DNA of 64,000 nt from Candidatus Dactylopiibacterium sp. (GTDB taxonomy: Bacteria; Pseudomonadota; Gammaproteobacteria; Burkholderiales; Rhodocyclaceae): positions 1-64,000 of the forward strand of contig JAVHXQ010000009.1 in the NCBI GenBank assembly GCA_031119555.1, written 5' to 3'. The notes beneath the pieces are model-generated. The model had not been told where the DNA came from. It saw only the letters and a list, made by a program, of their open reading frames with translations, and ran no database searches. Shown in pieces: positions 213-60,391 of the stretch (position 1 is its first letter; each line of letters opens with the position of its first letter). The position numbers were made by a program, and so were the translations under genes.

Positions 213-1916
213 GTGCCCCGCAACCATGCCCACTGCATGCTCGCCCTGGCAGCATTCATGATGGCGACAGGATGCGCGACGCCGCCCGCACAGACGCTTC
301 GCCCGGGCGATCATCTTTTGTCTCAGGAGCCGGTTGCAGCAAAGGCCCTGCCCCCACCCGCCGCGTCGTCGACCACGCAACCGCCCGCAGGACAGGAAGC
401 ACCGCGCCCCACCGCACAAGACACCTATTCGCTGTCGGTCAGGAATGTTTCGGTACAGAGCCTGCTACAGGCACTTGCTCAGGATGCGCCGATGGATATC
501 GATGTTCATCCTGCCATCACGGGTTCGGTTACGCTGAATGTCCGCAATCAGACGCTGACCCGCATACTCGATCGTATTGCTCGTCAGGCGCCCATCCGCT
601 ACGAACGGGATGGCGACACCCTGCTGATACTTCCCGACGAGCCCTTCATCCGCCACTACTCGGTGGATTACGTGAATCTCGACCGCGAGACAACCAGCAC
701 GATCTCGGTGGCCTCGCAGCTGGGCTCCCCAGAAGGAAATGCCACGAACGCCCGTTCTGCGGTGCCCCAGCAATCCGGCAGCGGCTCCACGGCCCGCATT
801 CAGAATACGTCGGCCCACCATTTCTGGCAGGCACTGGGGCGCAATCTGACGGAGTTGCTGCGGGAGACCGACGGCGACGGCAATCTGGCCGCGTGCTCCG
901 CCTCTGATCCGTCTGCCGACAGCGAGAAGCCCGCTCAGCCCGCCGCCGCGCCCTGCTCTGCGCTTCAGCCCACCCGGAAAGCCTCGCTGACGCTCAACCC
1001 GGAGGCCGGGTTGCTCGCGGTGCATGCCCGCTCGCACCAGCACGCGCGGGTGGGGGCGTATCTGGACAGCTTGCTGCGCCGCGCGCAACGGCAGGTCTTC
1101 ATTGAGGCCACGATCGCAGAGGTGGCCCTGACGCAGAACTTTCAGCAGGGAATCGACTGGAGTGCGCTCAATCTCTTCGGGACAGGCTTGCGCGTCGTGC
1201 AGCAAACCGTCGGCGCCTTTTCCACAACGAATGCCCGCCCCTTCATCGAGCTGGGATACGACTCGTCAGGCGGCAATTTCCAGAGCGTGGTGAAGCTGCT
1301 GGAAACCTTCGGCAGCGTGCGCGTGCTTTCAAGCCCCAAGCTCGCCGTGCTTCACAACCAGACGGCCGTCATGAAGGTCGTGGATGACAACGTCTATTTC
1401 ACCTACGAGATCAAGGAAACGGATGCCACGACCAACAGCCCGGCCAAAACCACGATCCAGTCCACCCTGCACTCGGTTCCGGTCGGTCTGGTCCTCACGA
1501 TCACGCCCATGATCGGAAGGGACGACAGCGTGACGCTCAACTTGCGTCCCAGCATGTCCCGCGTGATCGGCCACAAGACAGACCCCAGCCTGCAGTTCCT
1601 GCAAGGCAACGCCTCGCTCACCAACACGATCCCCATCATCCGCGCACGCGAGTTCGATTCCGTGCTGCGCATCGGCAACGGCAATGTCGCCATCATGGGC
1701 GGGCTCATGGAAGACACGCTGGACAGGGCCGCCGCCAGCATCTCCGGCCTTGCCGCATTGCCGCTCGTAGGGCGCCTGTTTCAGAACCGCAACGACACGC
1801 GCAGCAAGACCGAGCTCGTCATCTTCGTCCGCCCCACGGTCGCGCCCGAAACGGGTGGCGATGCGCTCGCCCGCTTCGCGCTGCCGGATCTGCGCGGAGA
1901 TGTCACATGGCAGTAG
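213..1916 (+). CDS. MSHA/type IV pilus-type secretin, lipoprotein (MshL/PilQ-like)
   Basis: ORF 78..1916. Lipoprotein signal MLALAAFMMATGC supports a start at GTG 213 or ATG 237. Secretin C-terminus GLMEDTLDRAAASISGLAALPLVGRLFQNRNDTRSKTELVIFVRPTV. Confidence 0.85.
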   Translation: MPRNHAHCMLALAAFMMATGCATPPAQTLRPGDHLLSQEPVAAKALPPPAASSTTQPPAGQEAPRPTAQDTYSLSVRNVSVQSLLQALAQDAPMDIDVHPAITGSVTLNVRNQTLTRILDRIARQAPIRYERDGDTLLILPDEPFIRHYSVDYVNLDRETTSTISVASQLGSPEGNATNARSAVPQQSGSGSTARIQNTSAHHFWQALGRNLTELLRETDGDGNLAACSASDPSADSEKPAQPAAAPCSALQPTRKASLTLNPEAGLLAVHARSHQHARVGAYLDSLLRRAQRQVFIEATIAEVALTQNFQQGIDWSALNLFGTGLRVVQQTVGAFSTTNARPFIELGYDSSGGNFQSVVKLLETFGSVRVLSSPKLAVLHNQTAVMKVVDDNVYFTYEIKETDATTNSPAKTTIQSTLHSVPVGLVLTITPMIGRDDSVTLNLRPSMSRVIGHKTDPSLQFLQGNASLTNTIPIIRAREFDSVLRIGNGNVAIMGGLMEDTLDRAAASISGLAALPLVGRLFQNRNDTRSKTELVIFVRPTVAPETGGDALARFALPDLRGDVTWQ

Positions 1917-3640
1917 TGCAGACGCCCCCCTTGCAACACGCTCCTATCGGGCGTCTGCTGGTGGAGCAGCGTCTCATCAGCGCGGACCAGCTCCGCATCA
2001 CTCAGCACGAGCAGGCGCGAACCGGGCAGGCCATCGGCCCCTTGCTCGTAAGCCTGGGCTTCGTCACCGAACACGCTCTGCGCGCCGCTCATGCGCAAGC
2101 CTGTGGACTCGCCGAGGCGGACCTCGCGCGCAGCACACCCGACAAGCAGGCGCAGGGCTGCGTTCCCGAACCGCTCGCGCGTCGGCTGGGGGTCTTTCCT
2201 CTGAGCTGGGACGCGACTCGTCGGCACCTGGAGCTCGCCATCGCCCGGCCCGACGATCTCGTCATCACGGATCAGCTGGCGGCACAACTCCCCCAGGGCG
2301 TGCTCGTGACCCTGAGGGTTGCGGGAGAGGACGAAATCCGTCAGGCGATCGAGCGTCATTACGGACACAAGGAAGACCTCGGCGCGCTCGTGGCCCACCT
2401 CGAACGCGCGGCCACCGAACCCCTGGCTCCCGGCCGGGAAGCCCCGCCCAGCCAGGCCGCCGTGCATCTCGTCGACGCCGTACTGCAGGATGCTGTGCGG
2501 CGCGAAGCCTCCGATATCCATTTCGAACCCGAACGCCATCTGCTGCGGATCCGCTATCGCATCGACGGCCTGCTGCGCGAGATCCTGTCTCTGCACGCGC
2601 CCGCCTGGCCGGCCCTCGCCGTGCGGCTCAAGGTCATGGCCGACATCGACATCGCAGAGAACCGCAGCCCGCAGGACGGACGCATATCCCAGGTCATCGG
2701 AGGGCGGCCCATCGACTTCCGTGTATCCACGCTGCCGACGCTGCATGGCGAAAACATCGTGCTGCGCATCCTCGACCGCCAGCGTCGCCTCATGCCGCTG
2801 GCCGGCCTGGGCCTTGCACCCACCCAGCTCGCCCGTCTGCGCATCATGATCGCCCGCCCGGAGGGTCTGCTGGTCTTCACCGGCCCCACGGGCAGCGGCA
2901 AGACAACCACGCTTTACTCCATCCTTCACCAGCTCGACGCCGCCCGGCTCAACATCATGACGCTGGAAGATCCTGTCGAGTACCCGCTGCCGGGCATCCG
3001 CCAGAGCACCATCTCCGAGGAAAGCCGCCTCGGCTTTGCCGAGGGCGTGCGCGCCATGATGCGGCAAGACCCGGATGTCATCCTCATCGGCGAGATCCGC
3101 GACGCCGAAACCGCCAGCATGGCCCTGCGCGCGGCCATGACGGGGCATCAGGTGCATGCCACGCTGCACTCCGGCTCCGCCCTTGGCACGCTGGTTCGTC
3201 TGCAGGAACTCGGCGTCCGGCCCGACATCCTGGCCGGCAACCTCATCGGCGCCGTCGCCCAACGGCTCGTGCGCCGGCTCTGCCCGCACTGCCGCGAGCC
3301 CCGCATGCCGACCGCCACAGAGCGTGAGCTGCTGGACGAAACCGGCACGACGACGCTTTTTGACGCCACGGGGTGCCCACTGTGCGATGGCCAGGGCTAC
3401 CGCGGCCGGCTCGCGCTGATGGAAATCCTGCGCATGAATGCCGAACTCGACGAACTCGTCGCGGCGGGCGCCAGCCGCCACGCCTTGAAGCGCGCGGCAA
3501 GAGCGGGCGGTTGCGTGTCGCTCGTTGAAGATGGCTTGCGCGCCGTGCGCGCGGGCCTCACCACGCTCGAGGAACTGGGCCGCGTCGTCGACCTCACCGA
3601 GCGCCAGCACGCCATGCCCGACATGGCTGCGGTGGAGTAG
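1907..3640 (+). CDS. GspE/PilB/MshE-type secretion ATPase with N-terminal MshEN-like region
   Basis: Walker A FTGPTGSGKTTTLYSIL; MRQDPDVILIGEIRDAETASMALRAAMTGHQVHATLHS; CPHCRE...CPLCDGQGYRGR zinc motif; overlaps the secretin stop. Confidence 0.93.
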   Translation: MAVVQTPPLQHAPIGRLLVEQRLISADQLRITQHEQARTGQAIGPLLVSLGFVTEHALRAAHAQACGLAEADLARSTPDKQAQGCVPEPLARRLGVFPLSWDATRRHLELAIARPDDLVITDQLAAQLPQGVLVTLRVAGEDEIRQAIERHYGHKEDLGALVAHLERAATEPLAPGREAPPSQAAVHLVDAVLQDAVRREASDIHFEPERHLLRIRYRIDGLLREILSLHAPAWPALAVRLKVMADIDIAENRSPQDGRISQVIGGRPIDFRVSTLPTLHGENIVLRILDRQRRLMPLAGLGLAPTQLARLRIMIARPEGLLVFTGPTGSGKTTTLYSILHQLDAARLNIMTLEDPVEYPLPGIRQSTISEESRLGFAEGVRAMMRQDPDVILIGEIRDAETASMALRAAMTGHQVHATLHSGSALGTLVRLQELGVRPDILAGNLIGAVAQRLVRRLCPHCREPRMPTATERELLDETGTTTLFDATGCPLCDGQGYRGRLALMEILRMNAELDELVAAGASRHALKRAARAGGCVSLVEDGLRAVRAGLTTLEELGRVVDLTERQHAMPDMAAVE

Positions 3641-3643
3641 GCC

Positions 3644-4846
3644 GTGCCGCGCTTTGCTTACACGGCACTCAATGCGGCGGGCCAGCGCGTCCTCGGCGCC
3701 GAAGACGCGGTCAGCGAGGCCGCGCTCGAGTCGCAGCTGAGCCCGCGCGGTCTGGCGCTCGTGCGCGCGCAGCCCCAGCGCTTCGTGCTGCCCCGGCAGA
3801 ACCCGCGCCTGCCCTTGCGCGAACGTATCCATTTCTGTTTCCAGCTTGAACAACTGCTCAGCGCGGGTATTCCGCTGATCGAGGCGCTCACGGAACTGCG
3901 GGACTCCGCCAGCCATGTCCGTACCGCTGCGGTGCTGGCAGAGCTCATTGCCCGCATCGAAGCCGGAGCGAACTTCTCCGACGCCCTGCGGACACAGGGA
4001 GCCGCTTTCGACGCCAGCGCCTGCGCCCTCGTGCGCGCGGGAGAAAGCAGCGGCCATCTGCCCGAAGTGCTCTCACGCCTGGCCGAAGCGCTGCGCCGCG
4101 AGGAATCCCTGCGCGCCGGACTGCGCAAACTCGCGATCTACCCTGGCTTCGTGCTCGTCACGGCCCTCGCCGCGCTTCTGGTCGCCATGCTCGGCGTCGT
4201 GCCCGAAATCGAAAAAATCTTCCGCAGCAGTCAGCTCACGCTGCCCTGGGCCACGCGCGCCCTGATCGTGGGAGCCGATCTCCTCGCACACGGCTGGCCT
4301 GCTCTGGTGCTCGGCGTTCCCACCCTCGGCGTGGCGGGCGCAATCCTCGTCCGCCGGAATCCGGCACTGCTCCGGCAGCGCGACGCCCTGCTGCTCGCCT
4401 TGCCCATCACGGGGCCGATCCTGCACAAGATCCTGCTCGCGCGCATCACCAACCTTTTCGCGCTCCTGCACGCCGCGGGGCTGCCGCTGCACGACACCCT
4501 GAAGCTCGTCTCCGAGGCCAGTGGCAACGCGGTGCTACGTGCCGCCCTGATACACGCCAACGAAGCCATCCAGACCGGGCACGGGCTGGGCGCAGCCTTC
4601 TCCGTGGCGGATGTCTTTCCGCCGCTGCTGCGCCGCATGATCCGCGTCGGCGAGCAGACCGGTGCCATAGACCGGGCGATGCAGAACCTCACCCGCATAT
4701 ATGAACGGGATGTGCAAGAAGCCATCGACACCCTGCAAGCCTCTCTGGAACCCGTGCTCACGCTGATTCTGGGCGCGCTCATGGGCTGGGTCGCGCTCGC
4801 GATCCTGGGGCCTGTGCACACCCTCGTGACACGGATGCCCGTCTGA
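3644..4846 (+). CDS. GspF/PilC/MshG-type inner-membrane platform protein
   Basis: GTG start; YTALNAAGQRVLGAEDA..., FCFQLEQLLSAGIPLIEALTEL, second repeat LFALLHAAGLPLHDTLKLVSE; multiple TM segments. Confidence 0.92.
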   Translation: MPRFAYTALNAAGQRVLGAEDAVSEAALESQLSPRGLALVRAQPQRFVLPRQNPRLPLRERIHFCFQLEQLLSAGIPLIEALTELRDSASHVRTAAVLAELIARIEAGANFSDALRTQGAAFDASACALVRAGESSGHLPEVLSRLAEALRREESLRAGLRKLAIYPGFVLVTALAALLVAMLGVVPEIEKIFRSSQLTLPWATRALIVGADLLAHGWPALVLGVPTLGVAGAILVRRNPALLRQRDALLLALPITGPILHKILLARITNLFALLHAAGLPLHDTLKLVSEASGNAVLRAALIHANEAIQTGHGLGAAFSVADVFPPLLRRMIRVGEQTGAIDRAMQNLTRIYERDVQEAIDTLQASLEPVLTLILGALMGWVALAILGPVHTLVTRMPV

Positions 4847-6318
4847 TGCCGCTGCGCCGACATTACATCCACTTCCTCGCTGCTGATGGCCTGCGCACGC
4901 ACGAACGCGCCCGCGGCCAGATCCGGGCCCGTGCACGCCATGCCGCCACCCCTTCGGGCGTGGGCGACTTCGAGGCTTGGCTGTCCGCGCGGCCGCACGC
5001 GGTCCACCACCTCGTGGTCGACCTCGTCGACGAGCACGCCAGCGTCGAAGCCCTTCCTCCGCTGCGCGCCAGGGAACGCCGGGCCTGGATCACACGGCGC
5101 GCGGCGCGCCAGTTTCCCGCCTCGACCTGTGCCACGGGGATGCGCCGTGGCAAGGACGACGCCTTGCTGCTGTCGGGCCTGCCGTCCGCGCTGGGGCTGT
5201 CGCCCTGGCTGGATGTCTTCGACCGCCAGGATGCCGCGCTCGCGACCGTGCATACCTCGGCCGGCCTGCTCGCGACCTCGCTCTCCCGTCAGGGGGATGC
5301 CGGTCTCTGCATTGCCCTCACGCCCGCCGGTCTGCGTTTCGTCCAGTTCGATGCGGCCGGCCTGCGCTTCACGCGTCTCGCGCCTCTGCCCGAGGATGAG
5401 TTCGACGCCTTGTTTCTGCTGCAGGAAACGCGCAAGACCCTGCACCACCTCGCCGATGGCGCCGCGCCGGGCACCCCGGCTCCCGGCACGCCCTTGCCGC
5501 TGCACGTCCTCCTTCCCGCAGCGCTTCTGCCCGAGGCACAGGCCGCCCTGGCCCAGACCGGGGCGGGGCCGGTCCTCGTCATGCCGGCAGCGCCGCCTCC
5601 GCGCGGACGCAACGGGCTCGCGGCAACAGATCTCCACGCCGAGGTACTCGCCACACTGGCGTTACTGGTCCTGAGCGGCACGCCCGCGCCCCAGCTGGCG
5701 CCCGCCCCCGCGCGCGCGACGCATCGCGTCCGCACCTGGCGCGACGCCGGGGTGGCTCTCGCGCTGGTCGCGAGCGCAGGCCTCTGTGCGTGGAGCGCCC
5801 ACGTCCATGAACGCGAAGTCCGCCTCGAGGCGGAAACCCTCGCCTTGCAGCGCACCGCGCAGGACACCGCGCGCCGCATCGCAGACCATCTATCCCCCTT
5901 GCCTTCCGCCGCTGCATTGGCGCAACTGCGCGCACTCGCGCCGCACCTGGCCCGCCTCGCCACGCCCCTGCCGCCTCCCGAAACGCTGCTGCTGCCGCTG
6001 TCACGCGTGCTCGAACACTATCCGGGCATGGTGCTCGAAGCCCTCGAATGGCGTTACGATTCCCCCGGGCCTGCCGGATCACCGTTGCGGCTGGCGCTGG
6101 AGATGCGGCTCGAGGGCGATCAGGAACCCGTCGCCGCGCTGCGATCGATGCGGGAGTTCTGTGCGGGGCTGCAAGCATTGGGGCTGGCAGTCAACGTAAC
6201 GTCCTCCCTCTTCGCGGGGGCCGCGGAGCGCCCCTTGCTCGCCAGCGAACTCGCCGACCCACGCTCGCGCCGGTTCGCACTCTCACTCACGCGCGCGCCG
6301 CAATCGCCCCCACCATGA
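4846..6318 (+). CDS. pilus/secretion assembly protein with PilM/PilN (GspL/MshI)-like layout, divergent
   Basis: 490 aa; about 290 aa N-terminal region, one TM (ALALVASAGLCAWSA), then periplasmic coiled-coil and domain; position between platform protein and PilO-like gene. Confidence 0.55.
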   Translation: MPLRRHYIHFLAADGLRTHERARGQIRARARHAATPSGVGDFEAWLSARPHAVHHLVVDLVDEHASVEALPPLRARERRAWITRRAARQFPASTCATGMRRGKDDALLLSGLPSALGLSPWLDVFDRQDAALATVHTSAGLLATSLSRQGDAGLCIALTPAGLRFVQFDAAGLRFTRLAPLPEDEFDALFLLQETRKTLHHLADGAAPGTPAPGTPLPLHVLLPAALLPEAQAALAQTGAGPVLVMPAAPPPRGRNGLAATDLHAEVLATLALLVLSGTPAPQLAPAPARATHRVRTWRDAGVALALVASAGLCAWSAHVHEREVRLEAETLALQRTAQDTARRIADHLSPLPSAAALAQLRALAPHLARLATPLPPPETLLLPLSRVLEHYPGMVLEALEWRYDSPGPAGSPLRLALEMRLEGDQEPVAALRSMREFCAGLQALGLAVNVTSSLFAGAAERPLLASELADPRSRRFALSLTRAPQSPPP

Positions 6319-6896
6319 CGCCCGTTCGTCTTCTGCGCCGCCGGCTGCGCCTGCTCACCCCGCTGTTGCCGGCCCTGCTCCTGCTGGTCAGCGCAGGCGT
6401 ACTCCTTGTATACATGCTGGGACGCGAAAACGTCGCCCACCGCCAGCACCAGGCTGCACATCAGGCGCTGAGCCAGCAGCGCGCGCTCGAGTCCGAAGCG
6501 CCCGCGCTCGGGCTGGCGCGCGATCGTCTCGCTTCCATCCCCGGCGTGGGCACCGACAACGCCACCGCGCGGCTGGTCTGGGCGCAGCGCCTGCAGCAGG
6601 CCGCGCGCGCGCAGGGGCTGCCGGAGCCCGTCTTCACGCTGCATCCGGCCAGCCCCCTCGAAAGCGCGCCCGAGCTTACCGGGGGCGGCCTGCAGGCAAG
6701 CCGCATGCATTTTCTGCAACCCCTCACGCATGAGCGTCAGCTCCTGGAATTGCTCGACGCGCTCGACGCCGCCCCCGGCGCCCGTCAGCATCCGCGCGGT
6801 TGCCGGGTCGCGCGCGGACGCGGCGAGCATCCTCTGGAAGCGGAATGCGAGCTGGACTGGCTGAGCCAGTCGGCGCCTGCCGGCGCCCGGCCATGA
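6315..6896 (+). CDS. PilO/GspM-like assembly protein, putative
   Basis: ATG at 6315 within ORF 6048..6896; single N-terminal TM (LLPALLLLVSAGVLLVYML) and coiled-coil; overlaps preceding stop. Confidence 0.5.
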   Translation: MTPVRLLRRRLRLLTPLLPALLLLVSAGVLLVYMLGRENVAHRQHQAAHQALSQQRALESEAPALGLARDRLASIPGVGTDNATARLVWAQRLQQAARAQGLPEPVFTLHPASPLESAPELTGGGLQASRMHFLQPLTHERQLLELLDALDAAPGARQHPRGCRVARGRGEHPLEAECELDWLSQSAPAGARP

Positions 6897-7291
6897 AAGG
6901 CTCCGTCACGCTCGCCGCGTGTCTGTTCGGCATCGCCTGCGGCACGGTTGGGGCGACGGAACAAACCGCCGCGCTGCGCGCGCAGATCGGGCGCCTTTTC
7001 GACCTTCCCCGGCCTCCCGGCAGCGCCCCGCCCGCCACGCCCGAGGCCCGCCCCTCGCCCTCCTCGGCGGGTCTTCCCGCTGCACCGGGCGCTCGCACGC
7101 TACGTCTGGACGGCGTGCTGCTGCGCCCCGACGGTCGCCATACGGTGTGGATCAACCACAACGCGCTCAGCGGCGCGGCCGCGCCCGTCGCGGACGATGT
7201 TCACAGCGTGTGGCTGCGCAGCGGACGCGGCGCCATGCGTCGCCTGCGACCCGGCGAATCCCTGAGCGACGACGCCCCGGTGGATCCATGA
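6893..7291 (+). CDS. small secreted PilP/MshK/GspC-like protein, putative
   Basis: ATG 6893, signal peptide MKGSVTLAACLFGIACGTVGA; core LRLDGVLLRPDGRHTVWINHNAL resembles PilP/MshK; start overlaps preceding stop. Confidence 0.5.
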   Translation: MKGSVTLAACLFGIACGTVGATEQTAALRAQIGRLFDLPRPPGSAPPATPEARPSPSSAGLPAAPGARTLRLDGVLLRPDGRHTVWINHNALSGAAAPVADDVHSVWLRSGRGAMRRLRPGESLSDDAPVDP

Positions 7292-8352
7292 AAGGCCAGC
7301 GCGGCTTCGCCACTCTCGCGGCCCTGGGGGTCGCCAGTCTCATTACCGCCACCGTCGTCTGGCAGGCGCTGTCGACGCGGGGCGGCGCCAGTTTCCAACA
7401 GCATGAAACCCGGGCGGCGCTACGCGCCCTGCGCGAAGCGCGTGAGGCCCTCATCGCCCACGCCCTCATCGAGGACAACACCCCCGGCAGCCTGCCGAGC
7501 CCCTCGGGCGAGGACGTGCTCGATGGCCGCTCGACGCCGCTGGGTTTCACCGGCAGCCCGGGCCAAGCCGCGCGACGCCTGCCCTGGCACTTCCTGGCGC
7601 TCGCGCCAGCACAGGATTGCCTCTGGTACGCACTCGCGCACACTCACCGCAACACGCTTTCCACTCACCTGCGCCGCGCCGGCAATGGCACGGCCATCAA
7701 CGCGGCCAGCGCCGGGCCGCTGCGCGTGCATACGCCCACGGCAGACGTCGCGGCCGTCGCGGTGATCATCGCGCCGGGCCGGGCCGGCCCCGCGCAAGGC
7801 GGCCGGACCGCCCCGGGCGTCGCACGGAATTGCGAGGGCGGTTCGGTCCCGGCCTTCCTTGAAGGCCGCAATGCCGACGGCAGCGAAGATTTCGACATGC
7901 CCCCCCTGCACGGCAACGATCTCGTGCTCGCACTCTCCGCCGAGGATCTGCTGCGCCCCGTGCTGCGCCGCGTACTGGGGCGCTTCCGCAGCGAAAGCCA
8001 GCGTGCCGACCTGCTTGCCCAGATCCACCTGCAACCCGGTGACGGCACGCTGGACAGCCTGCGCTGCGCGGCGACCGCCTCCGGCGTGCCCTGTGCCTTC
8101 GCGCAGCACTTCGACGAACGCCTGGCGGGCACCGAGGCCGCGCGGCTCGTCTATGGCGGGCAGCCGTGTCCGGGCCTCAGCCGCGTCGACGGCGCGACCT
8201 ACCGGCATCCCGTGAGCTGGCTGTGCTTCAACGACTGGTATGCCCACATCCGCTACGAGCGTGCCAGCGACCGGCTTGTCGCGCAGTTGCCCGGCGCGGC
8301 GGGCGTCTGCCGGCTCGATCTGCAGTCTGGCCGTCTGCACTGCGAGCACTGA
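7288..8352 (+). CDS. large prepilin-like (possible GspK-like tip) protein
   Basis: ATG 7288; MKGQRGFATLAALGVASLITATVV, a class III-like signal without Glu5; 354 aa with paired cysteines; shares motifs with the next gene. Confidence 0.5.
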   Translation: MKGQRGFATLAALGVASLITATVVWQALSTRGGASFQQHETRAALRALREAREALIAHALIEDNTPGSLPSPSGEDVLDGRSTPLGFTGSPGQAARRLPWHFLALAPAQDCLWYALAHTHRNTLSTHLRRAGNGTAINAASAGPLRVHTPTADVAAVAVIIAPGRAGPAQGGRTAPGVARNCEGGSVPAFLEGRNADGSEDFDMPPLHGNDLVLALSAEDLLRPVLRRVLGRFRSESQRADLLAQIHLQPGDGTLDSLRCAATASGVPCAFAQHFDERLAGTEAARLVYGGQPCPGLSRVDGATYRHPVSWLCFNDWYAHIRYERASDRLVAQLPGAAGVCRLDLQSGRLHCEH

Positions 8353-8355
8353 GCC

Positions 8356-8976
8356 ATGCCTGCTCGCTCCGGCCCCGCACGAGGTTTCACGCTGATCGAG
8401 CTGGCGATCGTGCTGCTCATCCTGGGCGTGCTCGGCAGCGGGGCATTCAGCGCACTCAGTCTGCAGATCGAGCGCAGCCGCCTGCTGGAAGTCCACGCGC
8501 AACTCCATGAAGCCCGCGAAGCGTTGCTCAATCACGCCGCCGCCACGGGCGCACTCCCCTGCCCCGACCGCAGCGGCGATGGCGAGCCCGACGCCTGCAA
8601 TGCCACGGGCGTGACGACCGGCGAGCTGCCCTGGCATCTGCTGGGGCTGCCGGCGCGCGATCCTTGGGGGCAGCCGCTGCGCTACACGGCGCATGCCGCC
8701 TTCACGGGCGCCCAGCCCATTGCGCTCGCAAGCCTGGGCGGCATCGAGATCCTGGCGCTGGAAGCGGGCGGCGCCACGCAATCGCTCGCCCGCCCCGACG
8801 CGGTCGTGATGGCGCTGTGGTCCGTCGGCGCCGACGGCCTCAGCGCCACGGCGCCGCCGCTCGCCGCCCACCGTGTCGTGGCGCGCGGGCCCGACGTGGA
8901 CGATCAGGCGATCTGGCTTTCGCGCTTCGTACTGATCGGGCGCATGCTCGAAACGGGGCACGTCCTGCTGGAGTAG
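8356..8976 (+). CDS. type IV prepilin / minor pseudopilin
   Basis: RGFTLIELAIVLLILGVLGSGAFSAL class III signal; CPDRSGDGEPDAC acidic loop. Confidence 0.85.
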   Translation: MPARSGPARGFTLIELAIVLLILGVLGSGAFSALSLQIERSRLLEVHAQLHEAREALLNHAAATGALPCPDRSGDGEPDACNATGVTTGELPWHLLGLPARDPWGQPLRYTAHAAFTGAQPIALASLGGIEILALEAGGATQSLARPDAVVMALWSVGADGLSATAPPLAAHRVVARGPDVDDQAIWLSRFVLIGRMLETGHVLLE

Positions 8977-8988
8977 ACTCTCCCACAC

Positions 8989-10293
8989 ATGGACACCTTC
9001 AGGCGCATCCTGTCGAGCCTGCGCGAGCTCGGCATCCACCCCGGCGACAGCGCCGAACACCGCATGCAGAAGGGGCTGCTCACCTTGCTGAGCCTGCTCT
9101 TCAGCGTGGTGGCCGGCGCCTGGCTGCTCGTCTACCGCATGGTCACGGATGAGTTGCCCCCGCTCCTGCCGCTCGCGATCGAACTCGTGATCCTGCTGAA
9201 CCTGCTGATCCACGCCGGGCGCGGCAACGTGGTGCTGTTCCGCCGCATCCTGGTCGCCACCCTGCTGTGCTTTCCGTTCGCGGCGCGCTGGCTCACGGGC
9301 GACTTCGCCTCGGCCTCCGGCCTCGTGCTGTGGGGCATGCTGGCGCCGATCACGGCGCTGCTCTGCCAGGCCCGGCGCGAATCGCTCGTCTGGTTCGCGC
9401 TCTACCTGGTGTTCGTGGTGCTCACGGAAATCGGCCGCCTGCCCGCCACGCCCGAGCACATCAGCTTGTCGCCGTCCCTGCTGAACCTCATGTTCACGCT
9501 CAACTTCGCGGCGCTGTCGACGGTGATCTACCTGTGCCTGCGCTTTGCCACGCACGAACGCGCACGCGTGCAGCGCATGCTGGAAATCGCTCACGCCGAA
9601 CTCGGACGCGAACAGGCACGCTCGGAGCAGCTGCTGCTCAACGTGCTGCCCGCCCCCATCGCCGAACGGCTCAAGCATTCCCACGCGCCGATCGCGGATG
9701 CCTGGCCCGACGTCTGCGTGATGTTCGCCGACATCGTGGGCTTCACTGATCTCGCCGCGGCGCACGCGCCGGACGACGTGTTCCGCCTGCTCAACCACGT
9801 TTTCAGTCATTTCGACGAGCTCGCCGAGCGCCACGGCCTCGAGAAGATCAAGACCATCGGCGACGCCTACATGGTGGCGGGGGGCCTGCATGCCGACGCA
9901 CAGGATGTCTGCGCCACGATGGCCGACCTGGCGCTGGAGATGCGCAGCTGGGTGCACCAGGATGGCCTCACGCGCCAGCACACGCTGCGCATCCGCGTGG
10001 GCATCGCCTACGGTCCGGTCGTGGCGGGCGTCGTGGGGCGGCGCAAATTCATCTACGACCTGTGGGGCGACACGGTGAATCTTGCGAGCCGGATCAGCTC
10101 GGAATGCCCGCCGGACACCATCCAGTGCGATGCCCGCACCTTTGCCCGCCTGAAATACCGTTACCTGTTCGAAGATCCCGTCACGCTGCGGCTGAAAGGC
10201 AAGGGCATGGTCAGCGTGTGGCGCCTGCTCGCGCGCAATCCGCTGCCCGTCACCGAGCCGCCGCTCGACCTGGACGTGAGCGGCACCGACTGA
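8989..10293 (+). CDS. class III adenylate cyclase with N-terminal multi-TM domain
   Basis: MFADIVGFTDLA, EKIKTIGDAYMVAGG (Lys), FIYDLWGDTVNLASRIS (Asp/Asn/Arg), a purine-specifying K/D pair typical of adenylyl cyclases; linker SEQLLLNVLPAPIAERLK. Confidence 0.92.
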   Translation: MDTFRRILSSLRELGIHPGDSAEHRMQKGLLTLLSLLFSVVAGAWLLVYRMVTDELPPLLPLAIELVILLNLLIHAGRGNVVLFRRILVATLLCFPFAARWLTGDFASASGLVLWGMLAPITALLCQARRESLVWFALYLVFVVLTEIGRLPATPEHISLSPSLLNLMFTLNFAALSTVIYLCLRFATHERARVQRMLEIAHAELGREQARSEQLLLNVLPAPIAERLKHSHAPIADAWPDVCVMFADIVGFTDLAAAHAPDDVFRLLNHVFSHFDELAERHGLEKIKTIGDAYMVAGGLHADAQDVCATMADLALEMRSWVHQDGLTRQHTLRIRVGIAYGPVVAGVVGRRKFIYDLWGDTVNLASRISSECPPDTIQCDARTFARLKYRYLFEDPVTLRLKGKGMVSVWRLLARNPLPVTEPPLDLDVSGTD

Positions 10294-10324
10294 GCCTCCG
10301 TTAACCCCGACGATCGTGCGGGCA

Positions 10325-10343
10325 GTCATGCCGTTGGCATGAC
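10325..10343. repeat. perfect inverted repeat GTCATGCC-gtt-GGCATGAC
   Basis: 8-bp perfect arms, 3-nt spacer, between the cyclase stop and the GTG of the pilin gene. Confidence 0.7.
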
Positions 10344-10439
10344 AGGGAACTTGCTACCGTCTTCCCACCCGGTCAGCAGCCGGCCGGCGCCGCGCGGGAA
10401 CCCTCTGCGCGCGGAACGCAGATCTCCAGGGAGGCTCCC

Positions 10440-11051
10440 GTGCATGCCCGTCATACCGGCTTCACCCTCGTTGAACTCGCCGTCGTGCTGATCATCATCG
10501 GACTGCTGCTGGGCGGCGTGCTGCAAGGCCAGGAACTCATCCACGGCGCCAAGGCAAAAGCCGTCGCCACCGACTTCCGCAACGTCACCACCATGCTCGC
10601 GGCCTATCAGGACCGCTTCCGCGCCCTGCCCGGCGACGATCGCGGCGCCGCCGCCCAGCTCGGGGCCACCACCTCCGGCAACGGCAACGGGCTCATCGAA
10701 GGCACCTGGGACAGTACCGCGCCGGCCGACGAATCCGCCCGCGCCTGGCAGCATCTGCGCCTGGCGAACCTTGCCAAGGGAGAACTGACACCGCCCGCGC
10801 CCGGCGACTGGGAGCCACACAACGCCGACGGCGGCCGCCTCGGGCTGCAGAGCACCACGCCCTTCCCGGGCATGCGCGGGCGCCTCTTCATCTGCCAGGG
10901 CGGCCTCTCGGGGCGTATCGCGCGGCAGGTGGACATGACGCTGGACGACGGCAAGCCCGACCAGGGCGCCATGCGTTTCGGCGCCGCGCTCGGTGCGGCC
11001 GCCAGCAACGTAGACGACGACGCAACCTACGTGGCATGCCTCAGCGCCTGA
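10440..11051 (+). CDS. type IV prepilin-like protein
   Basis: GTG start; TGFTLVELAVVLIIIGLLLGGVLQGQELI; C-terminal Cys residues and acidic ALPGDDRGAA loop. Confidence 0.85.
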   Translation: MHARHTGFTLVELAVVLIIIGLLLGGVLQGQELIHGAKAKAVATDFRNVTTMLAAYQDRFRALPGDDRGAAAQLGATTSGNGNGLIEGTWDSTAPADESARAWQHLRLANLAKGELTPPAPGDWEPHNADGGRLGLQSTTPFPGMRGRLFICQGGLSGRIARQVDMTLDDGKPDQGAMRFGAALGAAASNVDDDATYVACLSA

Positions 11052-11057
11052 GGCCGC

Positions 11058-13028
11058 TCAGGCGCCCTTGAGAAGCCGGTCCTCGGCGGCGGCGAGCGCG
11101 GCGGGCGCCCCGAGCAGCACCACGATGTCGCCATTCTCCAGACGCATGTCGGCCGCCGGATCGAGCCGGCGCTCACCGCGCCGGCGCACGGCGGCCACGC
11201 TGGCGCCGGTGTTCTCGAGTGCCAGCTCGCTGATGCAGCGCGACACCGCATGCGCCCCGGCCGGCAGCGAAACCGAATGCAGCCTCTCCTCGGGCGCATC
11301 GGCGGCCGGATTCACGTCCGACGCGCCCATGAAGAATCCACGCATGAGGGTGTAGCGCTGGGTGCGGATGTAACGCATGCGGCGGACCACGGTCGCGATC
11401 GGCGTGCCGATCAGCGTCAGCGTGTGCGTGGCAAGCATGATGCTCGTCTCCAGCATCTCGGGCACGACCTCGGCCGCCCCCTTGCGCATCAGGCGCTCCA
11501 TGTCGCGCTCGTCCTGCGAGCGCGCCACCACGGGAATGTCCGGACGCGCCGCGAGCACGTGATGCAGCACCTTGCTCGTCGCATGCTCGTCGTTGTAGGC
11601 CACCACGACCGCGCTCGCGCGCATGAGGCCGGCCGCGACCAGCGTCTCGTGGCGCGAAGAATCGCCGAACACGACCGGGTCCCCGGCGGCCGCGGCTTCC
11701 TGCACGCGGTCGGGGTCCAGATCGAGCGCCACGTAGCTGACCTGCTCGTTCTCGAGCAGGCGCGCGAGGTACTGCCCGGTACGGCCGTAGCCGCAGATGA
11801 TGACGTGACGATCCGTGGAGATGGCCTTCGCCGCCACGCGCGTGAGTTCCATCGAGCGCACCATCCACTCGGACGCGACGAAGCGCAGCACGATGCGGTC
11901 GCTGTACTGCACGATGAGCGGCGCGAGCAGCAGCGAGAGCACCATGGCCGCGATGACGAGCTGCATGACGGTGTTGGGAATCACGTCCACGCCCACCGCC
12001 AGCGTCAGCAGCACGAAGCCGAACTCCCCCGCCGCGCACAGCCACAGGCCCGCGCGCACGGCGGTGCCATCCTGCCCCTCGAGCCAGCGCGAGGCGCAGG
12101 CCACGACGGCAAACTTGAGCAGCAGGATGCCGGCCAGGATCAGCAGCACCCATTGCAGGTTGGCCACGATGGCGGCCACGTCGAGGAACATGCCGACCGT
12201 GACCATGAACAGCCCGAGCAGCACGTCGCGGAACGGCTTGATGTCTTCCTCGACCTCGATGCGGAACTCGGTTTCCGAGATCAGCATGCCCGCCAGGAAC
12301 GCCCCGAGCGCCATCGAGAGACCCGCCATCTCGGTGACCCACGACAGGCCCAGCGTGATGAACAGGATGTTCAGCATGAACAGCTCGGACGACTTGCGGC
12401 GCGCGACCATCGTGAACCAGCGCTTCATGAGCCGCTGACCCAGGAACAGCAGCAGCGCGAGCACGACCAGCGCCTTGAGCGCGGCCAGGCCCAGCGTCAG
12501 CCACAGCGCGTCGCCGGGACGCGAGAGCGCCGGGATCAGGATCAGCAGCGGCACCACGGCCAGATCCTGGAACAGCAGCACCCCGATGACCTGGCGCCCG
12601 TGCGGCGTCTCGAGCTCCATGCGATCCACGAGCAGCTTGGAGAGCATCGCGGTCGAGGACATCGAGATCACGCTCGCCACCGCGAAACTCGTTGCCCAGC
12701 CCAGTCCCAGCAGTTTGCAGACCGTGCCCACGATCACGATGCTGCCGATCACCTGCAGCGAGCCCAGCCCCAGCACGATGCGCTTCATGGCATAGAGCCG
12801 CGCCAGCGAGAACTCCAGCCCGATCGAGAACATCAGGAAGACCACGCCGAACTCGGCGAGGTAACGCGCCTGCTCACTGTCCGGCACCAGCCCCAGTGCG
12901 TTGGGGCCGAGTGCCGCGCCGACGACGAGGTAGGCAAGCACGGCGGGAAGATTGAAAGCGCGGAAGAGGGCAACCATGCAAACGGCTGCCGCCAGCAACA
13001 ACAGGACTACGGTGAAGGAGCCGTGCAT
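11058..13028 (-). CDS. KefB/KefC/YbaL-type cation:proton antiporter with TrkA-N domain
   Basis: MHGSFTVVLLLLAAAVCMVALFRAFNLPAVLAYLVVGAALGPNALGL; RHVIICGYGRTGQYLARLLENEQ; C-terminal TrkA-C-like region. Confidence 0.9.
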   Translation of the reverse strand: MHGSFTVVLLLLAAAVCMVALFRAFNLPAVLAYLVVGAALGPNALGLVPDSEQARYLAEFGVVFLMFSIGLEFSLARLYAMKRIVLGLGSLQVIGSIVIVGTVCKLLGLGWATSFAVASVISMSSTAMLSKLLVDRMELETPHGRQVIGVLLFQDLAVVPLLILIPALSRPGDALWLTLGLAALKALVVLALLLFLGQRLMKRWFTMVARRKSSELFMLNILFITLGLSWVTEMAGLSMALGAFLAGMLISETEFRIEVEEDIKPFRDVLLGLFMVTVGMFLDVAAIVANLQWVLLILAGILLLKFAVVACASRWLEGQDGTAVRAGLWLCAAGEFGFVLLTLAVGVDVIPNTVMQLVIAAMVLSLLLAPLIVQYSDRIVLRFVASEWMVRSMELTRVAAKAISTDRHVIICGYGRTGQYLARLLENEQVSYVALDLDPDRVQEAAAAGDPVVFGDSSRHETLVAAGLMRASAVVVAYNDEHATSKVLHHVLAARPDIPVVARSQDERDMERLMRKGAAEVVPEMLETSIMLATHTLTLIGTPIATVVRRMRYIRTQRYTLMRGFFMGASDVNPAADAPEERLHSVSLPAGAHAVSRCISELALENTGASVAAVRRRGERRLDPAADMRLENGDIVVLLGAPAALAAAEDRLLKGA

Positions 13029-13121
13029 GAACGATTCACGTGTGCCGCAGGCCTGAAGCAGGCAAGCGGGCCGATGGATGGCTTTGTTATACTCGCCCAC
13101 CAGTCTAACCGCAGCCTGCCC

Positions 13122-14126
13122 ATGAGCCCAACATCCCAGACGAGCGCGAGCCTTCGCTCCCCCGCCGCGACCCTCGAAACGGCAAGGCGCGTGCTCGCCA
13201 TTGAGGCTGCCGCGGTCAGCGCATTGAGTGAGCGCCTCGGGCCCGATTTCGTGCGGGCCACCGAGCTCATCCTCGCCGCGCGCGGCCGGGTCATCGTCAG
13301 CGGCGTCGGCAAGTCCGGCCATATCGCCCGCAAGATCGCGGCCACCATGTCGAGCACCGGCACCCCCGCCTATTTCGTTCATCCAGGCGAAGCCGCGCAC
13401 GGCGACCTCGGCATGATCCAGCCCGGCGACGTGCTGATCGCCCTGTCGAATTCCGGCACCGCCGAAGAGCTGCTGGTGATCGTTCCACTCATCAAGCGCA
13501 TGGGCGCCAGCATGATCGCACTGACGGGGCGCGACGATTCGCCCCTCGCACGGCTGGCCGACGCGCACCTGAACACCGGCGTGGCCGAGGAAGCCTGCCC
13601 GCTCAACCTCGCGCCGACCGCCAGCACCACCGCCACCCTCGCCATGGGCGACGCGCTGGCCGTGGCCCTGCTCGAAGCACGCGGCTTCGGCCCCGAGGAT
13701 TTCGCGCGCTCGCATCCCGGTGGCGCCCTGGGGCGGCGCCTGCTCACCCGCGTGCGCGACATCATGCGCACGGGCGAGGCGATCCCGCGCGTCGCGCTCG
13801 ACGCGAGCTTCGGCGAAGCGCTGCTCGAAATCTCGCGCAAGGGTCTGGGCATGACCGCCATCGTCGATGCCGAAGGCCGCGTTGCCGGCATCTTCACGGA
13901 CGGCGATCTGCGCCGCCTGCTGGAACGCGGGCCCGATATCCAGCGTCTACGCATCGCCGACGTGATGCATCGCGAGCCGCGCAACATCGGCGCCGACGCG
14001 CTTGCCGTGGAGGCCGCCGAACTCATGGATCGTCATCGCATCAGCCAGGTCCTCGTGGTCGATGAAGCCCGGCAGCTCATCGGCGCGCTCAACACCCACG
14101 ATCTGCTCAACGCGAAAGTGATCTGA
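13122..14126 (+). CDS. kdsD: D-arabinose 5-phosphate isomerase (SIS + CBS domains)
   Basis: GRVIVSGVGKSGHIARKIAATMSSTGTPAYFVHPGEAAHGDLGMI; paired CBS repeats; next to kdsC. Confidence 0.95.
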   Translation: MSPTSQTSASLRSPAATLETARRVLAIEAAAVSALSERLGPDFVRATELILAARGRVIVSGVGKSGHIARKIAATMSSTGTPAYFVHPGEAAHGDLGMIQPGDVLIALSNSGTAEELLVIVPLIKRMGASMIALTGRDDSPLARLADAHLNTGVAEEACPLNLAPTASTTATLAMGDALAVALLEARGFGPEDFARSHPGGALGRRLLTRVRDIMRTGEAIPRVALDASFGEALLEISRKGLGMTAIVDAEGRVAGIFTDGDLRRLLERGPDIQRLRIADVMHREPRNIGADALAVEAAELMDRHRISQVLVVDEARQLIGALNTHDLLNAKVI

Positions 14127-49696: not shown

Positions 49697-50917
49697 ATGA
49701 TCAAGAAAATTCCCTCGACCGAACTGCGCCTGGGCATGTTCGTCCACGAGCTCGACTGTGACTGGCTGACCCACCCGTTCTTCACGAACCGCTTTCTCAT
49801 CAGCAAGGAAGCCCAGATCGAGAAGATCCTGGAGACGGGCATCCACGACGTCTATATCGATACCGAACGCGGCGTCGACGCCCCCAACGCGCCGACCGAA
49901 GAGGAAGTCCGCGCGACGCTCGAACAAGAGATCATGACGCTCGCGGCGCAAGCGCCCCCGGCCCCGCTGCAGGTGCATCGCGAGGAAGAGATCCAGCGCG
50001 CCAGCGCGATCCGTGGCCGCGCCCAGGCGCTGGTGCGCAACGTGATGGCCGACGCGCGCCTGGGCCGCGCCGTGGAAGTCGAGCAGGCCGAGCAGGTCGT
50101 GCTGCACATCACGGAATCCATCCTGCGCAACAGCGGCGCCCTGCTGGGGCTGCTCACGATCAAGAACAAGGACGACTACACCTTCCTGCACTGCGTCAGC
50201 GTGTGCGCGCTGCTCGTGGCCTTCTGCCGCTCCCTGGGCCTGGACACCGAGACCATCCGCCAGGCGGGTCTGGGCGGTCTGCTGCACGACACCGGCAAGG
50301 CGCTCGTGCCCGACGCAGTCCTCAACAAGCCCGGCAAGCTCACCGACGAAGAGTTCGAGCTCATCAAGCGCCATCCGCGCGACGGCTACGAAATCCTGCT
50401 GCGCTCGCCGGAAATCGGCCCCATCCCGCTGGACATCACGCTGCACCACCACGAACGGCTGGACGGCGCCGGCTATCCCGACCGCCTGCCGCCCGCGCAG
50501 ATCCAGCAGCTTGTCCGCATGGCCTCCATCGTGGATGTGTACGACGCGATCACTGCCGACCGCTGCTACCACCGGGGCATGCCGGCCACCGACGCGCTGC
50601 GCAAGCTGCACGAATGGAGCGCCAACCACTTCGATCCCCAGCTCGTGCAGGCCTTCATCCGCTGCGTGGGAATCTATCCGGTCGGCACGCTGGTGCGCCT
50701 GGAGTCCGGCCGCCTCGGCGTGGTGCTGGAGCAGAACGAAGCCAGCCTGCTGACCCCGCGCCTGAAGATCCTCTTCAACGCCAAGTCGGGCAACCGCGTG
50801 CAGCCCTATGAGCTGGACCTGTCACGCGGCATGGGGGCCGGCGGCGCCGACCGCATCGTGGGTCACGAAGACCCCGCGAAGTGGCAGATCGACACCCTGC
50901 CCTTCATCACGAGCTGA
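49697..50917 (+). CDS. HD-GYP domain cyclic-di-GMP phosphodiesterase (DUF3391 N-terminus)
   Basis: IPSTELRLGMFVHELDCDWLTHPF; LLHDTGKALVPDAVLNKPGKL; HHHERLDGAGYPDRL. Confidence 0.94.
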   Translation: MIKKIPSTELRLGMFVHELDCDWLTHPFFTNRFLISKEAQIEKILETGIHDVYIDTERGVDAPNAPTEEEVRATLEQEIMTLAAQAPPAPLQVHREEEIQRASAIRGRAQALVRNVMADARLGRAVEVEQAEQVVLHITESILRNSGALLGLLTIKNKDDYTFLHCVSVCALLVAFCRSLGLDTETIRQAGLGGLLHDTGKALVPDAVLNKPGKLTDEEFELIKRHPRDGYEILLRSPEIGPIPLDITLHHHERLDGAGYPDRLPPAQIQQLVRMASIVDVYDAITADRCYHRGMPATDALRKLHEWSANHFDPQLVQAFIRCVGIYPVGTLVRLESGRLGVVLEQNEASLLTPRLKILFNAKSGNRVQPYELDLSRGMGAGGADRIVGHEDPAKWQIDTLPFITS

Positions 50918-54820: not shown

Positions 54821-56728
54821 ATGACCAAGCTTCGCCCCTTTTTCCTGCCACTCGTCTGCAGCCTGCTGGTGCTGGCCCTCGCGGCATTCGCGCTGTACGA
54901 GATCAACGCGCTGCGCGCGGAGCAGGCCACGCGCCGCACCGAGGCGGCCTCGCGTCAGGTGGGCCTGGCCCTGCAGCAACAGCTCAACGCCACCCACCGC
55001 CTGCTCGACGCCATCCACGCGTTCCGCGCCAACGCCGACCCCGCCGAACTGGGCGACTTCCTTGCGCGCATGCTGCGCGAAAGCCCGCCCGAAGGGCTCG
55101 TGAGCGTGAATCTCGCCCCCCTCGTGCTGCCCGAGGACGCCGCCGCGCTGATCGCCGCGCAGCACCATGCCGGTCTGCCCGAGTTCACCATCCGCCCGGC
55201 CGGGCAACGCCCGCTCATGGCTCCGATCACCCTCTCGCGCGGCCCCTTCGGCCAGCTCGGCGACGACCCGGGGCAGGATCTGCTCGCCGACCCCGAACTC
55301 CAGCCCGCCCTCACGAGCGCGCGCGACAGCGGCCGCCCCGCAGCGGCGGGGCGCATCATGCTGCGCGGACGCAGCGGCGTTCTCGAACCCGGCTTCGCCA
55401 TCGCCGCACCGATCTTCCGCGACGGCCTGAGCCCCGACAACGTGGTCGAGCGCCGCGCCCGGCTGGACAGCTGGATCGTCATGAGCTTCTCGTGGCGGGA
55501 CTGGCTGCGCGGCGTGCTCATGGACGTTCCGGAAGGCGTGGACCTGCGTCTCTACGCCAACAGCGCCAACGCCCCCGAAGACCTGCTCTTCGCCACCGCC
55601 CAGTCGGCACCGGCGATGGCCGCGCGCATTTCGGGCACCTACGCGCTGCGCCTGGGAGAACAGCCCTGGCGCCTGGACGTGACCATGCGCGAGCAGGCCG
55701 CCACGGACGACGACGAAGCCCCCGCGCGCCACATCCTGCTGGCCGGCATCATCGTCGCGGCGCTGAGCTTCCTGCTGCTGGGCGCGTCGGCGTTGCGCCA
55801 GCGCCAGGACAAGGCCCGTCTCGAACAGCTGGAAGACGCCATCCAGGAGGCCGAGGAACGCTGGCGCTTCGCGCTCGAGGGGGCGGGCGACGGCGTCTGG
55901 GACTGGCATATCCGCAGCGGCGGAATCCGCTTCTCGCCGCGCTGCGATGCCATCCTGGGGGTGGCCGAAGGCAGGGCCGCGAGCGCGCCCGTACACCCCG
56001 AGGACGAAGCGGCCGAGCGCACCGCCATGCAGGCCTGCCTCGAAGGCCGCGCCAGCCAGTACGCGAGCGAGCACCGCATGCAGGGCGACGATGGTCAGTG
56101 GCGCTGGATCGCCGCGCGCGGCATGGTCACCGAGCGCGACGCGAAAGGCGCGGCGTTGCGCATGATAGGCACCCTCAGCGACATCACCGAGCGCAAGGCA
56201 GCCAGCTCGCGCCTGCAGGACATGGCCCAGCACGATTCGCTGACCGGCCTGCCCAACCGCACGCTGTTCTTCGACCGTCTGCAGCAGGCGCTGCGCATGG
56301 CGCGACGCACGCAGGCCACGCTGGTGCTGATCTACGTCGATCTCGACCGCTTCGGCGCCATCACCTCCGGTTTCGGTCAGGACACCGCGCGCCGCGTGCT
56401 TCAGGAAGTGGCGCGCCGGCTGCAGAAGGTCACGCGCGACTCCGACACCGTGGCCCACGTGGGACGCGACGAGTACGTGATCCTGTTGCCCGCGATGGCG
56501 GCGGAATCCGACATCCACCTCGTGCTCGACAAGATCCGCCCCGCGCTGGAAGAGGATTTCAGCTTCGAGCATCGCCACCTGGGCCTCACCGCGAGCTACG
56601 GCGTGGCCTTGTTCCCGCAGCACGGCACGAGCGCCGAGACGCTGTTCAACTCAGCCGAGCGCGCCATGAACCAGGCCCGCAAGAGCGGCGGCAACACCGT
56701 GTGCTTCAGCCTGGCACGCTCGGAGTGA
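54821..56728 (+). CDS. CHASE-PAS-GGDEF domain protein
   Basis: ATG 54821; periplasmic CHASE-like domain between two TMs; PAS/PAC (GDDGQWRWIAARGMVTERDAKGAALRMIGTLSDITERKAA); GGDEF domain DSLTGLPNRTLFFDRLQQAL with site VGRDEY. Confidence 0.85.
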   Translation: MTKLRPFFLPLVCSLLVLALAAFALYEINALRAEQATRRTEAASRQVGLALQQQLNATHRLLDAIHAFRANADPAELGDFLARMLRESPPEGLVSVNLAPLVLPEDAAALIAAQHHAGLPEFTIRPAGQRPLMAPITLSRGPFGQLGDDPGQDLLADPELQPALTSARDSGRPAAAGRIMLRGRSGVLEPGFAIAAPIFRDGLSPDNVVERRARLDSWIVMSFSWRDWLRGVLMDVPEGVDLRLYANSANAPEDLLFATAQSAPAMAARISGTYALRLGEQPWRLDVTMREQAATDDDEAPARHILLAGIIVAALSFLLLGASALRQRQDKARLEQLEDAIQEAEERWRFALEGAGDGVWDWHIRSGGIRFSPRCDAILGVAEGRAASAPVHPEDEAAERTAMQACLEGRASQYASEHRMQGDDGQWRWIAARGMVTERDAKGAALRMIGTLSDITERKAASSRLQDMAQHDSLTGLPNRTLFFDRLQQALRMARRTQATLVLIYVDLDRFGAITSGFGQDTARRVLQEVARRLQKVTRDSDTVAHVGRDEYVILLPAMAAESDIHLVLDKIRPALEEDFSFEHRHLGLTASYGVALFPQHGTSAETLFNSAERAMNQARKSGGNTVCFSLARSE

Positions 56729-59726: not shown

Positions 59727-59746
59727 GGCGGCTTCCGTGCGGGCAA

Positions 59747-60328: not shown

Positions 60329-60391
60329 TGCACATTCCTCCTGCTTTCCAGCGGCCGGGCGCACCCGGCCTCATGAGACATCTGCGGCCGC

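What the first reader, a model, noticed from the sequence alone, without database searches (positions are those of the whole stretch)
213..11051. Divergent type IV pilus/type II secretion-like system with embedded adenylate cyclase
Seen: overlapping same-strand genes for a lipoprotein secretin, assembly ATPase, platform protein, three divergent assembly proteins and two prepilin-like proteins, then a cyclase and a third prepilin-like gene. The core resembles MshL-MshE-MshG (established), but the genes after mshG keep only architecture, and no retraction ATPase, prepilin peptidase or conventional major pilin is in the window. Inference: a specialised MSHA-like or secretion nanomachine, not the housekeeping pilus. 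Genes left of base 1 are unseen and the open frame reaches the window edge.
Basis: partly seen in the sequence, partly recalled or inferred. Interest (0 to 1): 0.6.

Follow-up and report, generated by a model that had tools for sequence, protein, structure and literature searches.

The report
MSHA-related pilus locus with adenylate cyclase
This is a stripped-down copy of a widespread but apparently unnamed type of bacterial pilus machine, related to but distinct from the cholera-type MSHA pilus, whose genes usually sit beside a cyclic-AMP-making enzyme, which suggests that pilus and cAMP signalling work together.

Summary
Bases 213-11051 hold ten same-strand genes: secretin, extension ATPase, platform protein, PilM+PilN-type fusion, PilO- and PilP-position proteins, two prepilins, a class III adenylate cyclase and a third prepilin. 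It is neither canonical MSHA nor a T2SS: the same genome carries a separate canonical MSHA operon (with MshQ), a T4aP with PilD, PilT and PilU, a T2SS and a Tad system. In ATPase+platform trees the window type is its own clade (100/100), apart from MshQ-bearing MSHA (100/99). It is widespread, with conserved order RR-mshM-L-N-E-G-I-J-K-pp1-pp2-(cyclase)-HK-pp3-kefB. The cyclase is a family-wide partner: 54 of 83 genomes with the system have it, 2 of 18 without; it directly follows pp2 in 27 of 39 loci. In relatives pp3 has a sigma-54 promoter (30 of 52; about 0.6 expected), so pp3 is probably the major pilin. The window copy is reduced and fast-evolving: no MshN, HK, MshM or regulator orthologue found, no intact sigma-54 site, three MshEN c-di-GMP-motif residues changed; cyclase and motor catalytic residues are intact. 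Novelty: new variant of a known kind. The role of cAMP is inferred, not shown.

The parts
213..1916 (+). mshL-like lipoprotein secretin
   Evidence: PF00263 4e-34; TIGR02519 MshL 245.8 bits against a cut-off of 250.2, just under; about 50% to genus mate G442
1907..3640 (+). mshE-like extension ATPase; Walker A/B, His box and two CxxC intact; MshEN motif altered
   Evidence: PF00437 2.9e-123, MshEN 1.9e-13; motifs; MshEN residues
3644..4846 (+). mshG-like platform protein
   Evidence: PF00482 4.8e-49
4846..6318 (+). mshI/GspL-like: PilM-fold domain fused to TM, long helix and PilN-like part
   Evidence: AlphaFold pLDDT 84; Foldseek PilM 5eou E 2.1e-8, EpsL 1yf5 8e-8
6315..6896 (+). mshJ/PilO-position protein, one N-terminal TM
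   Evidence: synteny and conserved family A2; no detectable profile match to canonical MshJ
6893..7291 (+). mshK/PilP-position protein with hydrophobic N-terminus
   Evidence: conserved family A3 with TVWIN motif; no significant profile match to canonical MshK
7288..8352 (+). prepilin-like pp1 (no Glu5); 57-residue N-terminal helix plus globular part; about 250 to 1220 aa in relatives
   Evidence: alignment A4, model; no fold match
8356..8976 (+). prepilin pp2, GFTLIE, GspG-like DPWGQPLRY motif
   Evidence: PF07963 5.7e-7; TIGR01710 1.9e-8, below cut-off
8989..10293 (+). membrane class III adenylate cyclase, complete catalytic set
   Evidence: PF00211 1.8e-50; nearest solved relative 7yzi E 1.3e-55 over residues 29-417; 5 to 6 TM segments
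10325..10355 (+). spacer: 8-bp inverted repeat 10325-10343 and sigma-54-like halves TGGCATG (10335) and TTGCT (10351) set 5 bp too far apart
   Evidence: suggestive only
10440..11051 (+). prepilin pp3, likely major pilin
   Evidence: PF07963 2.7e-6; orthologues follow a sigma-54 site in relatives
11058..13100 (-). kefB/C-like antiporter: conserved right-hand neighbour that anchors synteny, not part of the system

Best explanation
The locus encodes a type IV filament machine of a distinct lineage related to MSHA. Inferred working: PilD, encoded elsewhere, processes pp3 (probable major pilin) and the minor pilins pp1 and pp2. The MshE-like motor and MshG-like platform polymerise them; the I-J-K inner-membrane complex (I being PilM and PilN in one protein, as in GspL) aligns the filament with the MshL-like lipoprotein secretin; PilT/PilU from the T4aP retract it. 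The co-located membrane adenylate cyclase makes cAMP in connection with the pilus state or the envelope signal that also drives the pilus. In relatives pilin pp3 is additionally switched on by a linked histidine kinase and NtrC-type regulator through a sigma-54 promoter, and the motor probably by c-di-GMP. In the window species these two inputs look degraded, leaving a compact, fast-evolving machine whose one linked signalling gene is the cyclase. Shown: gene content, lineage, synteny, cyclase linkage, sigma-54 enrichment, residue changes. Inferred: piliation, roles of pp1-pp3, cAMP coupling, loss of c-di-GMP control.
For: Separate clade: W 35 rows 100/100, MSHA 11 rows 100/99, both one-sided in all bootstrap trees (quick tree). 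Canonical MSHA with DUF6701/MshQ (4.2e-106) in the same genome, and both types together in other genomes (G091, G111, G120, G140). Conserved order in dozens of loci. I has a PilM/EpsL fold. Cyclase: in 54/83 system-bearing against 2/18 other family genomes, Fisher 3.4e-5 (not corrected for relatedness); directly 3' of pp2 in 27/39 loci, gaps -4 to 288 bp; catalytic residues conserved. A second cyclase subtype lies at the same locus in six loci of other families. Sigma-54 sites upstream of pp3 in 30/52, null mean 0.6, max 3; 0-1 hits per other gene class. Reduction: L and E overlap, no MshN, MshM or RR orthologue (best 37-39% over the near-full length, against 57-66% among relatives). Acceleration: E 55% to G381 although G381-G442 E is 86% and FtsI window-G381 is 74%. 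MshEN G18R, L29Q, L58H at positions shown to matter in PMC5013675.
Against: No experiment. The secretin tree supports MSHA as a clade (99) but the window clade only weakly (48). J and K could not be tied to PilO/PilP by profile comparison. Absence of MshM, MshN and RR rests on a 94.7%-complete, 99-contig assembly whose contig ends just left of the locus; the kinase was looked for only at the locus. The genus mates G381 and G442 also lack HK and pp3 at this place, so part of the reduction may be older than this species. NCBIfam's MshE c-di-GMP motif model still scores over its cut-off (52 against 38). About a third of system-bearing genomes lack the cyclase, and no CRP-like site lies near the locus.
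Confidence: 0.7

Rival explanations
1. It is simply the MSHA pilus of this lineage, diverged by ordinary drift.
For: MshL model 245.8 bits, close to its cut-off; MshE/MshG resemblance; related loci carry mshM and mshN homologues.
Against: A canonical MSHA operon sits elsewhere in the genome; two fully supported separate clades; no mshF, A, C, D, O, P or Q equivalents; I is fused where canonical M and N are separate genes.
Confidence: 0.1
2. It is a type II-like secretion machine: pp1-pp3 are pseudopilins that push exoproteins through the secretin.
For: GspL-like fused I; pp2 and pp3 hit GspG best; no retraction ATPase at the locus; T2SS and MSHA share ancestry (PMC6668835).
Against: GspD/E/F models score far below cut-off; the genome has a full T2SS; sigma-54 control of pp3 resembles that of a major pilin (the pilA comparison is general knowledge).
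Confidence: 0.2
3. In the window species the system is a decaying or repurposed remnant without a working pilus; only the cyclase is still under strong constraint.
For: Missing MshN/MshM/RR, no intact sigma-54 site, MshEN changes, E+G end branch 1.56 in the careful tree; cyclase diverged only modestly (58% against 68% between genus mates).
Against: All ten frames are open and motor catalytic motifs are intact; pp3 is 56% identical to that of L152, no worse than other pairs.
Confidence: 0.3
4. The cyclase is a bystander that shares an operon with the pilus genes without acting on them.
For: Some family genomes have cyclase-HK-pp3-kefB away from the core genes (L169, L174, L176); about a third of system-bearing genomes lack it.
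Against: It stays linked to pp3 and HK even when the core has moved; rare in genomes without the system (2/18); a different cyclase subtype occupies the same locus in other families.
Confidence: 0.25

Closest known systems
MSHA pilus (Vibrio cholerae mshI-mshQ)
   Same: MshL/MshE/MshG-type core, MshEN domain on the motor, mshM and mshN homologues in relatives, no PilD or PilT at the locus
   Different: own E+G clade; PilM and PilN fused; no mshF/A/C/D/O/P/Q; three prepilins; linked adenylate cyclase; kinase/NtrC regulator with sigma-54 promoter in relatives
Type II secretion system
   Same: GspL-like fused actin-fold/PilN protein; GspG-like motif in pp2; same superfamily
   Different: below GspD/E/F cut-offs; no GspH-K set; a separate T2SS exists in the genome
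Type IVa pilus (PilB/PilC/PilMNOPQ, PilSR)
   Same: PilM-fold protein; sigma-54 control of a pilin by a kinase/NtrC pair in relatives
   Different: different gene order and not grouped with the genome's own T4aP; PilT/U/D supplied from elsewhere
Membrane class III adenylate cyclase (M. intracellulare Cya, 7yzi)
   Same: TM domain plus catalytic domain, all catalytic residues; match over residues 29-417
   Different: encoded inside a pilus locus

Membership tests
Canonical MSHA | Motor and platform fall inside the clade of MshQ-bearing MSHA loci | tested here: not met
   separate clades, 100/100 and 100/99
Canonical MSHA | Secretin passes TIGR02519 MshL cut-off | tested here: not met
   245.8 against 250.2, narrowly; the genome's canonical MshL scores 269.2
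Canonical MSHA | Pilin/accessory set mshF, A, C, D, O, P, Q | tested here: not met
   absent here; present on C82 with DUF6701 4.2e-106
Canonical MSHA | mshM (mandatory in the published MSH model, PMC6668835) | tested here: inconclusive
   no hit in the assembly, but the contig ends left of L; present in relatives
Canonical MSHA | No prepilin peptidase in the locus | tested here: met
   the only PilD is on C1; PMC6668835 reports this for MSH loci
T2SS | GspD, GspE and GspF equivalog cut-offs | tested here: not met
   132.5/351, 468.9/630, 269.8/424 bits
T4aP | PilQ/PilB cut-offs and PilMNOPQ layout | tested here: not met
   101/284 and 467/676 bits; genuine set on C87 and C1
Window-type clade (defined here) | Fused I gene and order L-(N)-E-G-I-J-K-pp1-pp2 | tested here: met
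   mshN missing in the window
Window-type clade (defined here) | Linked HK, NtrC regulator and sigma-54 site before pp3 | tested here: not met
   no HK at the locus, no RR orthologue in the assembly, no intact site; common but not universal in relatives
Class III adenylate cyclase | Two metal Asp, adenine-selecting Lys and Asp, Asn/Arg of the transition state | tested here: met
   FADIVGF, EKIKTIGD, YDLWGD, VNLASR
Class III adenylate cyclase | cAMP-forming activity | not testable with these tools
   needs an enzyme assay
Type IV filament | Forms a surface filament | not testable with these tools
   needs microscopy

The most novel reading that the evidence does not exclude
A widespread second MSHA-type machine works as a cAMP-signalling surface organelle: a dedicated membrane adenylate cyclase, recruited at least twice from different class III subtypes, reads or drives pilus state, and in the window lineage cAMP has replaced c-di-GMP and sigma-54 control.
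Probability: 0.25. Interest if true: 0.75.

Novelty: new variant of a known kind. Interest (0 to 1): 0.5.

Why it matters
The secretin model comes within five bits of the MSHA name, so annotation could easily file these genes as MSHA. The trees and gene content show a second lineage that coexists with true MSHA in the same cells and lies in most genomes sampled from the host family (83 of 101). Its recurrent link to an adenylate cyclase makes a question directly testable in culturable relatives: is cAMP signalling built into a pilus machine? The window copy, which lacks several regulatory parts while keeping motor and cyclase, is a natural contrast for telling which controls are dispensable.

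Tried and rejected
Assuming that no PilD/PilT means a non-retracting secretion device: rejected, both are elsewhere and MSH loci normally lack PilD. Treating I/J/K as unknown: I was resolved by fold; J and K stayed unresolved by profile comparison, as did I against canonical M (E 3e-4, probability 39%). The I profile against PDB sequences found only chance hits. pp1 model: a pilin-type N-terminal helix but no fold match. CRP-like sites: only two weak matches in the window, fewer than chance and far from the locus. The genome-contig scan with pp1 gave one relative, L009. My first ORF caller chose antisense frames in this GC-rich DNA and was replaced by a codon-usage caller. Literature searches found no description of this lineage with an adenylate cyclase, but only open-access text was searched; a Fe-oxidiser genome paper notes rearranged MSH clusters in Betaproteobacteria (PMC3770913), which may be this type.
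Full report
What is there. Pfam and NCBIfam identify the secretin, the MshEN-bearing assembly ATPase, the platform protein, two prepilins with a type IV methylation motif and a class III nucleotide cyclase; the genes between platform and pp2 (I, J, K, pp1) match no family. The window begins at the first base of contig C76, so the left flank is unavailable.

What else the genome has. Searches of the same assembly find a T4aP (pilB-C-D on C1, pilM-Q on C87, pilT/U on C60), a T2SS (C51), a Tad system (C73), another PulE/F-prepilin locus (C57) and a canonical MSHA operon on C82 that contains MshQ (DUF6701, 4.2e-106) and carries separate PilM-, PilN-, PilO- and PilP-position genes plus mshL. Names of the individual C1, C87, C60, C51 and C73 genes rest on sequence features and order as read. 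[quoted passage not shown]

Lineage. ATPase plus platform sequences from 35 window-type loci, 11 MshQ-bearing MSHA loci and the genome's own T2SS, T4aP and C57 proteins give two clean clades (W 100/100, MSHA 100/99, quick version). The outgroup rows are long and the root between these groups is not settled. The secretin tree agrees for MSHA (99) but supports W weakly (48). Protein I folds as a PilM/EpsL-like actin fold followed by a TM-containing long helix and a C-terminal alpha/beta part (pLDDT 84; PilM 5eou E 2.1e-8, cyto-EpsL 8e-8), that is PilM and PilN in one chain as in GspL, whereas canonical MSHA loci here keep them apart.

Distribution and order. The I gene is found in 83 of 101 genomes of the host family, and platform relatives at E below 1e-60 in 50 of 100 genomes of the order, nearly all the inspected ones lying in window-type loci. 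The shared order is RR-mshM-L-mshN-E-G-I-J-K-pp1-pp2-(cyclase)-HK on the other strand-pp3, often followed by kefB-kdsD; kefB follows pp3 in the window too.

Cyclase. 56 of 101 family genomes carry a relative of the cyclase. It is present in 54 of 83 genomes with the system and 2 of 18 without (Fisher 3.4e-5, not corrected for relatedness), and lies directly 3' of pp2 on the same strand in 27 of 39 examined loci. Catalytic residues are complete and the nearest solved relative is a mycobacterial membrane adenylyl cyclase. In six loci of other families a different cyclase subtype (KYxGD, YTxxGD) sits on the opposite strand beside pp3, which suggests more than one recruitment.

Regulation in relatives. 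The kinase carries HATPase_c and the regulator is a sigma-54 activator. A -24/-12 site matching at least 10 of 12 consensus positions lies upstream of pp3 in 30 of 52 loci, mostly 45-85 bp before the called start; block-shuffled sequence gives 0.6 (max 3), and other gene classes give 0 or 1. A pilin with its own sigma-54 promoter is most simply the major pilin; this is inference.

The window copy. L and E overlap by 10 bases with no mshN between; no mshN, mshM or regulator orthologue was found in the assembly, and no kinase lies between cyclase and pp3. No intact sigma-54 site precedes pp3; the two half-sites TGGCATG and TTGCT are 5 bp too far apart, while the compact relative L009 keeps GGGCACCAATATTGCT. 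In MshEN (V. cholerae numbering) Gly18 is Arg, Leu29 is Gln and Leu58 is His, positions at which changes weaken c-di-GMP binding (PMC5013675); Arg9 to Pro is shared with much of the family. The motor is 55% identical to that of G381 (same genus), though G381 and G442 share 86% and FtsI is 74% between window and G381. L009, which shares the compact pp2-cyclase-pp3-kefB order, keeps a slow motor (84% to G381), so the acceleration is specific to the window lineage. Walker, His-box and CxxC motifs remain.

Interpretation. The best reading is an MSHA-related pilus of a separate lineage with a linked cAMP-making enzyme, here reduced. That it forms a pilus, that pp3 is its major subunit, that cAMP and pilus act on each other, and that c-di-GMP control is lost are inferences.

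Noticed in passing
L072 (G000:C57) 1978-7197: A further PulE/GspF-type locus in the same genome with prepilin-like genes; unassigned type IV filament system, cut by the contig end.
   Followed up: partly
L070 (G000:C82) 414-13928: Canonical MSHA operon rearranged: E-G-F-A-C-D-O-P-Q followed by M-N-J-K-L, with no mshM or mshN seen.
   Followed up: partly
L045, L048, L050, L052, L054, L057: In other families a different class III cyclase subtype lies on the opposite strand next to pp3; ABC-2 permease and ABC ATPase genes were identified in the same cluster (L048).
   Followed up: partly
window 10325-10343: Perfect 8-bp inverted repeat GTCATGCC-GTT-GGCATGAC between cyclase and pp3; terminator or regulator site unknown.
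   Followed up: no
L166 8934-12443, L170, L164: Genes in the pp1 position vary from about 250 to over 1200 aa, as might be expected of a variable tip adhesin.
   Followed up: no
window 49697-50917 and 54821-56728: An HD-domain protein with DUF3391 (HD-GYP-like) and a CHASE-PAS-GGDEF diguanylate cyclase lie downstream in the window.
   Followed up: no
window 57495-61663: Polysaccharide export cluster: Wzz/tyrosine-kinase-like, Wza-like and BBP2_2 porin-like genes.
   Followed up: no
L173 (G411): Genome without a detected window-type I gene keeps cyclase-pp3-kefB-kdsD, next to another MSHA-like set on the opposite strand.
   Followed up: no
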